From: Pirellulaceae bacterium
GTDB taxonomy: Bacteria; Planctomycetota; Planctomycetia; Pirellulales; Pirellulaceae
Assembly: GCA_030744095.1 (NCBI GenBank)
Contig: JASLRF010000433.1
Span: 1 to 8,005 of the forward strand
Length of the DNA: 8,005 nucleotides
Direction of reading: 5' to 3'
Shown here: one piece after another, positions 7,266 to 8,005 of the stretch
Layout: each line of letters opens with the position of its first letter
Position numbering within the stretch: position 1 is the stretch's first letter
Made by a program: the position numbers and the translations under genes
The notes under the pieces: generated by a model
The model's database searches: none
Told to the model about the DNA's origin: nothing
The model's input: only the letters and a program-made list of their open reading frames with translations

Positions 7266-7360
7266 TCATGCCAGGCAAAGAAGACTGCGCGGAATCACTC
7301 AATGAAGCCATGAAGAAAGGTAAGAATTCTTGGACGACGACGTTCCCTACCTGCTCCTGA
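7262..7360 (+). other. Small overlapping ORF, 32 codons, doubtful
   Basis: An ATG overlaps the permease stop in the classic ATGA arrangement (7262-7265) and reads 32 codons to TGA at 7358-7360. It passes through the phnW start in a different frame. It begins with a hydrophilic stretch (MIMPGKEDCAESLNEAMKKG) and its last residues are simply phnW DNA read out of frame. It could be a coupling leader that carries ribosomes to the TTG start, or the original N-terminal codons of phnW separated by a frameshift near 7320-7330. I do not recognise it. Confidence 0.25.
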
Positions 7361-7428
7361 CGCCCGGCCCGCTGACGACTTCGCGCACGGTTCGTCAGGC
7401 CATGGTGAGTGACTACTCGACTTGGGAA
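7330..7428 (+). pseudogene. phnW: 2-aminoethylphosphonate:pyruvate transaminase, N-terminal fragment
   Basis: Translation from TTG 7330 gives DDDVPYLLLTPGPLTTSRTV followed by RQAMVSDYSTWE. This is the conserved N-terminus of PhnW, whose hallmark is LLTPGPLTTS-x-TV and a D-x-x-T-W a few residues later. PhnW is a PLP enzyme of the class V type that moves the amino group of 2-aminoethylphosphonate to pyruvate, giving phosphonoacetaldehyde and alanine. Only about 33 of the usual 360-370 residues are present; after Glu at 7426-7428 the frame turns into unrelated basic sequence and stops at 7596. The start is TTG with AAAGG 9 bases upstream (7316-7320), and the preceding in-frame codon but two is a stop, so no ATG is possible in this frame. 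It follows the permease by 64 bases, in the place expected for a cluster member. The catalytic Lys region is absent, so this fragment cannot be active. Confidence 0.75.
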
Positions 7429-7442
7429 GCTCGCCGAAGAGT

Positions 7443-7751
7443 CGGCACTCGACGCATTCTTCGTGGACCACCGTTGATTGGCATTGGATCTGGAGCGATA
7501 ACTTTGGCGATCCGCATCGCACCGACAAAAGGTCCCCAGGCGTGGCCGATCGTCAAATACAAATCAATCCCCAGGCCGCCAAGGATCAAGGGCTGAACGA
7601 AGGCGACTACGTTTGGGTCGACGCCAACGAACTCGATCGTCCGTATATCGGTTGGAAGGATGATAAGGGGCCACGGCACAAAGCATTCCGCTGCATGGTC
7701 CGAGTCAAGGTCAATCCGGGTCTGCCGTACAACTTTACGATCATGAAGACA
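7443..7751 (+). pseudogene. NarG/NxrA-type molybdoenzyme catalytic subunit, internal fragment
   Basis: In a second frame (codons beginning at multiples of three) the DNA encodes about 103 residues. HSTHSSW matches the HSTYSDN motif late in NarG. It is followed by SDNFGDPHRTDKRSPG, then DRQIQINPQAAKDQGL, NEGDYVWVDAN, a KAFRCMVRVKVNPGLPYNFTIMKT end. This is the molybdopterin-dinucleotide-binding C-terminal region of nitrate reductase/nitrite oxidoreductase alpha subunits (established family; INPQ-A-A-K-D-x-G-I then D-x-V are its markers). No start codon or upstream part is present: homology begins within about 15 bases of the end of the phnW piece, and it ends abruptly at Met-Lys-Thr where the beta-subunit piece begins in another frame. 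The normal protein exceeds 1100 residues. The frame stays open to the window edge but loses meaning after 7751. The Nxr-like versus Nar-like assignment rests on remembered motifs only. Confidence 0.75.
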
Positions 7752-7753
7752 CG

Positions 7754-8005
7754 CCTCGTGGCGGTGATTTCAACGCTGACCGCCAGTTCGGCGGCTCGAC
7801 GCAGTTGCCCGAACACAAAGTCTGGTTTTTCCATCTGGCCCGTATCTGTAACCACTGCACCTACCCCGGATGTCTCGGATCTTGCCCGCGCAATGCAATT
7901 TACAAGCGGCCCGAAGACGGAGTCGTGCCTGTCGACCAAAGCCGTTGTCGTGGTTATCGCAAGTGTGTCGAAGGTTGCCCATACAAGAAGTCGATGTATC
8001 GGCCG
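7754..8005 (+). pseudogene. NarH/NxrB-type Fe-S electron-transfer subunit, internal fragment, runs off the window
   Basis: In the third frame, 84 codons run from 7754 to the window edge, beginning PRGGDFNADRQFGGS and then WFFHLARICNHCTYPGC. The Cys pattern is C32-x2-C35-x4-C40-x3-C44-P, then C65-x5-C71-x3-C75-P with YKK after it. This is the same spacing as NarH (CEHC.NPACV.TCP and CRGWRMC..GCPYKK), where it corresponds to about residues 175-240. All visible cysteines are kept, so at least this piece shows no decay. The normal N-terminal 150 or so residues, with the first CxxCxxxC cluster, are missing and no start codon precedes the piece. In an intact operon this subunit follows the alpha subunit, so the order here is right, but the end of alpha and the start of beta have been removed. 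Because the window ends inside it, whether the rest is intact is unknown. Confidence 0.82.

What the first reader, a model, noticed from the sequence alone, without database searches (positions are those of the whole stretch)
7330..8005. Three-piece mosaic: phnW start, NarG/NxrA middle, NarH/NxrB middle, each in a different frame
Seen: PhnW homology ends at about 7428, alpha-subunit homology begins at about 7443 and ends at 7751, and beta-subunit homology begins at 7754. The three pieces are read in frames 1, 0 and 2. Established: an intact path from PhnW codon 33 to beta-subunit residue 165 would need several kilobases. Motifs and cysteines inside each piece are undamaged, which argues for recent events or an artefact rather than long decay. 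Alternatives are an assembly or long-read chimera, a natural multi-deletion scar, or a recombination hotspot. Blocks this clean and in operon order would fit collapse of a longer true locus by deletion.
Basis: partly seen in the sequence, partly recalled or inferred. Interest (0 to 1): 0.75.

Follow-up and report, generated by a model that had tools for sequence, protein, structure and literature searches.

The report
Chimeric contig end, not a gene
The last 675 bases of this 8-kb bacterial metagenome contig are pieces of three ordinary genes glued together, most likely a laboratory or assembly chimera, so the finding is a warning about contig ends rather than new biology.

Summary
After a complete DUF5690 gene the contig holds a phnW start (7331-7427), an internal nxrA piece (about 7428-7748) and an internal nxrB piece (7742-8005), in three frames. 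The window appears to be a whole 8005-bp contig, so the mosaic is its very end. Relatives show the intact parents. In 15 of 17 planctomycete genomes whose nxr surroundings I read, cytochrome c / nxrA / TorD-like / nxrB stand intact on one contig; the other two are cut by contig ends. In 11 of 11 genomes with both pieces on one contig, 1208-1394 bp lie where the window joins nxrA to nxrB. phnW and DUF5690 occur in none of those 17 surroundings. Join 2 shares 7 bp (CATGAAG); join 1 shows none. Differences from relatives are mostly synonymous, so the pieces came from working genes. No second copy of either join was found. Best reading: a chimeric contig end from template switching or mis-joining in amplification, library or assembly. 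A genuine recent rearrangement cannot be excluded without reads. 'Collapse of a longer locus' fits only the nxrA/nxrB half.

The parts
5943..7265 (+). complete DUF5690 gene, last intact gene before the mosaic
   Evidence: PF18943 E 1e-136
7266..7330 (+). 65 bp without a known relative; possibly intergenic, possibly the site of a third join
   Evidence: no match in G005, G052 or G080; GC 43.5% for 7262-7330; the five phnW relatives printed start with ATG where the window has TTG
7331..7427 (+). phnW, codons 2-33 (frame 1)
7427..7428 (+). join 1, phnW to nxrA, no shared bases evident
   Evidence: 11 of 14 phnW matches stop at 7427, nxrA matches begin at 7428-7434; relatives' sequence
7428..7748 (+). 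internal nxrA piece, about codons 919-1025 of relatives (frame 0)
   Evidence: 7b04_B 915-1020, E 5e-39; 78.5-92.5% identity to G005, G080, G052
7742..7748 (+). join 2, nxrA to nxrB, inside the shared word CATGAAG; 1208-1394 bp missing compared with 11 genomes
7742..8005 (+). internal nxrB piece with cysteine motifs, cut by the contig end (frame 2)
   Evidence: 7b04_A 151-226, E 3e-36; 73.9-84.1% identity to G005, G052, G080

Best explanation
The 3' end of the contig is a chimera. A planctomycete contig ending in DUF5690, possibly followed by a real phnW start, was extended through DNA of an nxr operon from the same or a related planctomycete by two false joins. At the second join nxrA and nxrB share CATGAAG, as when a growing strand switches template; it skips the end of nxrA, the TorD-like gene and the start of nxrB. 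Shown: the pieces, the breakpoints, the intact parents in relatives. Inferred: that the joins arose in vitro or in assembly, and at which step. No working product is expected from this stretch.
For: Mosaic confined to the end of what appears to be a complete 8005-bp contig. Intact parents: cytochrome c / nxrA / TorD-like / nxrB complete on one contig in 15 of 17 genomes read; 1208-1394 bp between the joined points in 11 of 11. phnW, DUF5690, FeS, DAO and ETF alpha absent from the same 17 genomes' nxr stretches. G005 and G764 carry the DAO-to-DUF5690 genes and nxr on different contigs. None of 37 matching genomes among 397 shows a match running on into the next piece by more than a few bases. 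The hybrid tail is seen only in the window's own protein, with 24 of 34 hits read. Exact joins absent from viral contigs. Few nonsynonymous changes in the nxrA piece. Other metagenome contigs hold NxrA pieces run into other sequence, P0151 into a peptidase S24 domain.
Against: Seven shared bases at join 2 are what a natural microhomology-mediated deletion would also leave. The two nxr pieces are in true order and orientation. GC of the nxr pieces (55.2, 56.8%) agrees with the operon (55.1-59.0%), so one genome is possible. If MDA was the cause, direct joins within 10 kb are rare: 11 of 475 (PMC1855051, passages read). An assembler alone would not usually join on 7 bases (general knowledge). 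Source sample and method are unknown.
Confidence: 0.86

Rival explanations
1. A genuine, recent rearrangement in a living cell: nxr DNA was joined behind phnW by end joining (join 1), and a microhomology-mediated deletion fused nxrA to nxrB (join 2), leaving dead remnants.
For: 7-bp shared word at join 2; nxr pieces in true order with one clean deletion; GC like the operon; conserved sequence would fit a very recent event.
Against: Needs two or three independent events within about 420 bp at the very end of a contig; the joins were not found elsewhere (each limited); the nxr operon is uninterrupted in the 15 of 17 genomes where it could be seen whole.
Confidence: 0.09
2. A real longer locus of this strain, with DUF5690, phnW and the nxr operon side by side, was collapsed in assembly by leaving out stretches.
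For: The two nxr pieces are in true order and orientation. phnW directly follows DUF5690 in 2 of 80 DUF5690 loci, L051 and L067.
Against: No phnW or DUF5690 in the nxr surroundings of 17 genomes; no nxr piece in 80 DUF5690 loci; a Rieske-type gene follows DUF5690 in L001-L005.
Confidence: 0.04

Closest known systems
Template-switching chimeras, as in MDA (Lasken and Stockwell 2007, PMC1855051; passages read)
   Same: Distant or skipped segments joined, often at a few shared bases; complementarity was seen in 90.9% of direct joins under 10 kb there.
   Different: In MDA 406 of 475 joins were inverted and only 11 were direct under 10 kb; here the nxr pieces are in direct orientation. Whether this sample was amplified is unknown.
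NxrAB nitrite oxidoreductase of the Kuenenia type (7b04) and its relatives in non-anammox Planctomycetota (PMC10732223, passages read)
   Same: The two pieces align over their length to subunits A and B; intact operons exist in related genomes.
   Different: Only an internal part of each subunit is present, in different frames, with the TorD-like gene missing.
2-aminoethylphosphonate-pyruvate transaminase PhnW
   Same: First 33 codons with the YLLLTPGPLTTSRTV stretch.
   Different: The other roughly 330 codons are missing; start codon TTG instead of the ATG of the relatives printed.

Membership tests
Kuenenia-type NxrAB | Sequence homology to both subunits | tested here: met
Kuenenia-type NxrAB | Complete alpha and beta subunits in open frames | tested here: not met
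   about 107 of about 1160 and 88 of about 430 codons; different frames; no downstream sequence exists beyond 8005
PhnW | Complete PLP-dependent transaminase | tested here: not met
   homology stops after about 33 codons
In vitro or assembly chimera | Parents intact and apart in relatives | tested here: met
   (relatives, not the same strain)
In vitro or assembly chimera | No reads spanning the joins at normal depth | not testable with these tools
   no reads available
Natural microhomology-mediated deletion | Shared bases at the breakpoint | tested here: met
   join 2 CATGAAG; join 1 shows none
Natural microhomology-mediated deletion | Same join in an independent genome or sample | tested here: not met
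   not seen in 397 genomes (two candidates scored per genome), 24 of 34 protein hits or viral contigs; metagenome contigs could not be scanned

The most novel reading that the evidence does not exclude
A living planctomycete carries a patchwork of conserved gene pieces captured behind phnW by end joining and microhomology-driven deletion, that is, an active fragment-capture process in this lineage that has just broken a nitrite oxidoreductase operon.
Probability: 0.04. Interest if true: 0.45.

Novelty: not a real feature. Interest (0 to 1): 0.1.

Why it matters
A gene caller reports hybrid proteins here (P0124) and could place nxr genes in the wrong operon or organism. The case shows that the last few hundred bases of a metagenome contig should be held against intact relatives before a fusion or pseudogene is claimed. 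If it were real, it would show very recent breakage of nitrite oxidoreductase genes in a planctomycete.

Tried and rejected
A fusion gene: rejected; the pieces are out of frame with one another and most of each protein is missing. An old pseudogene: rejected; mostly synonymous differences and no stop or frameshift inside a piece. Finding the host genome: none is held. Using a Rieske gene to learn what follows DUF5690 on the 16,556-bp contig of P0004: inconclusive; none of the 120 hits listed of 2169 is on a contig of that length. Likewise none of the 34 NxrA-piece hits is. Reading 7262-7330 as a Rieske start: not convincing against seven Rieske N-termini. Exact joins in viral contigs: 0 matches each. 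A CATGAAGA repeat at 7309 and 7742: it also occurs at 1698 and 2167 and once on the other strand, so no weight is put on it. Paper searches on assembly chimeras with microhomology gave listings only.

Full report
What is there. The window holds the start of a BNR-type gene (minus strand, 3-392) and an operon: FAD-dependent oxidoreductase (823-2091), ETF beta (2162-2920), ETF alpha (2932-3897), an Fe-S protein with a NarI-like part (3887-5950) and DUF5690 (5943-7265). The finding covers what follows: 97 bp of phnW start, about 320 bp of internal nxrA and 264 bp of internal nxrB. The closest solved relatives of the last two are subunits A and B of the Kuenenia nitrite oxidoreductase, 7b04.

The contig. 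No genome is held for the window. The window's own hybrid protein P0124 is listed with a longest contig of 8005 bases, the exact length of the window. So the window appears to be one whole contig, and the mosaic is its last 675 bases. An identical FeS protein (P0004) is listed on a contig of 16,556 bases, so a longer assembly of this DNA seems to exist, but I could not fetch it.

What follows DUF5690 in relatives. In L001-L005 (DUF5690 67-76% identical) a Rieske-type gene follows (named from L004, whose 3' part finds proteins with PF00355 and PF00848; the other four read by eye). L004 has a stop inside that gene. L020 shows no Rieske start in the 210 bases printed. A phnW start was found in 9 of the 80 DUF5690 loci, directly downstream on the same strand in two, L051 and L067. 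A true DUF5690-phnW pair in the window is therefore possible, and I do not insist on a join at 7330. No nxr piece was found in any of the 80 loci.

Intact nxr loci. The nxrA piece matches 4 of 170 genomes in the family of G005, one of them (G097) weakly and with stops (one search covered 170 genomes again as an order and gave the same four), and 79 of 392 in a draw from the phylum. I read the surroundings in 17 genomes (18 stretches of 12.3-20 kb), chosen from the better matches and not all of them. In 15 the order cytochrome c, nxrA, TorD-like gene, nxrB is complete on one contig. In G655 the contig ends inside nxrA; in G052 the operon is split over two contigs. phnW, DUF5690, FeS, DAO and ETF alpha gave no hit at 1e-8 in any of the 18 stretches (ETF beta was not tried).

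The joins. A DNA search of 397 genomes of the class with 7331-8005 matched 37 (only two candidates per genome were scored). Of 14 genomes with phnW matches from the first base, 11 stop at 7427, 2 at 7430 and 1 earlier. nxrA matches begin at 7428-7434; 9 of 12 end at 7752-7755. nxrB matches begin from 7742 on. None runs on into the next piece by more than a few bases. In 11 of 11 genomes with both nxr matches on one contig, 1208-1394 bp lie between the points that the window joins. At join 2 relatives read ATCATGAAG-CAC in nxrA (G764, G647) and ATC-CATGAAGACACG in nxrB (G724); the window passes from one to the other inside CATGAAG. At join 1 no shared base is evident. Seven or more shared bases at a random join have a chance of about 4e-4 (own arithmetic, equal base frequencies), so join 2 was probably made by annealing strands, in a tube or in a cell.

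Age. The nxrA piece differs from G052, G080 and G005 by 53, 54 and 49 synonymous and 8, 10 and 23 nonsynonymous codons; the nxrB piece by 43, 37 and 34 against 14, 14 and 23; the phnW piece from G080 by 13 against 6. No piece has a stop or frameshift inside. Two residues look unusual: Ser for Thr at the start of the nxrA piece, and Pro where G080, G005 and Kuenenia have Leu in the nxrB piece; either could be a mutation or a read error. On the whole the pieces were parts of working genes until very recently. The GC of the nxr pieces (55.2, 56.8%) agrees with the operon (55.1-59.0%); that of the short phnW piece is higher (64.5%). G005 and G764 carry DNA relatives of the operon and of nxr on different contigs.

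Verdict. Joins seen nowhere else, parents intact and apart, fresh pieces and a position at the very end of a contig together make a chimera the best explanation. Which step made it is open. MDA fits the shared bases but not the direct orientation: 406 of 475 joins were inverted, 11 were direct within 10 kb (PMC1855051, passages read). NxrA pieces run into other sequence occur in other metagenome proteins: P0151 (peptidase S24), P0153 (partner not identified by Pfam) and P0146 (odd tail), 3 of the 24 read; that fits a general library or assembly problem. A real rearrangement stays possible at about one in ten and needs reads to exclude. The nxr genes themselves are not new: putative Nxr-type genes in 19 Planctomycetota MAGs were reported in 2023 (PMC10732223, passages read).

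Noticed in passing
L082, L087, L176-L185, L187-L189: Conserved operon cytochrome c (with an ethylbenzene-dehydrogenase-like domain in G005) / NxrA / TorD-like / NxrB in 15 of 17 planctomycete genomes read; direction of the enzyme (nitrite oxidation or nitrate reduction) not known.
   Followed up: partly
window 823-7265; L001-L005: Operon of FAD oxidoreductase, ETF beta and alpha, Fe-S/NarI-like protein and DUF5690, followed in L001-L005 by a Rieske gene whose relatives some sources name glycine betaine monooxygenase or catabolism A; it may be a pathway for methylated amines.
   Followed up: partly
P0151 (530-bp contig), P0153 (2060-bp contig), P0146 (1056-bp contig): NxrA pieces run in one frame into unrelated sequence, a peptidase S24 domain in P0151; probably other chimeric contigs.
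   Followed up: partly
L086 and L101 (G052 contigs C394 and C444): After nxrA, contig C394 of G052 continues with a different 247-residue reading frame, while TorD-like and nxrB start another contig; a second doubtful contig end at the same operon, or an insertion.
   Followed up: no
P0129, P0142, P0145, P0148, P0149, P0154, P0155: NxrA proteins from other metagenome contigs, some of 12-91 kb, that appear to leave the frame, as uncorrected insertions or deletions would cause (read by eye).
   Followed up: no
L004 11318-12564: Rieske gene of the closest operon relative has an in-frame stop early on.
   Followed up: no
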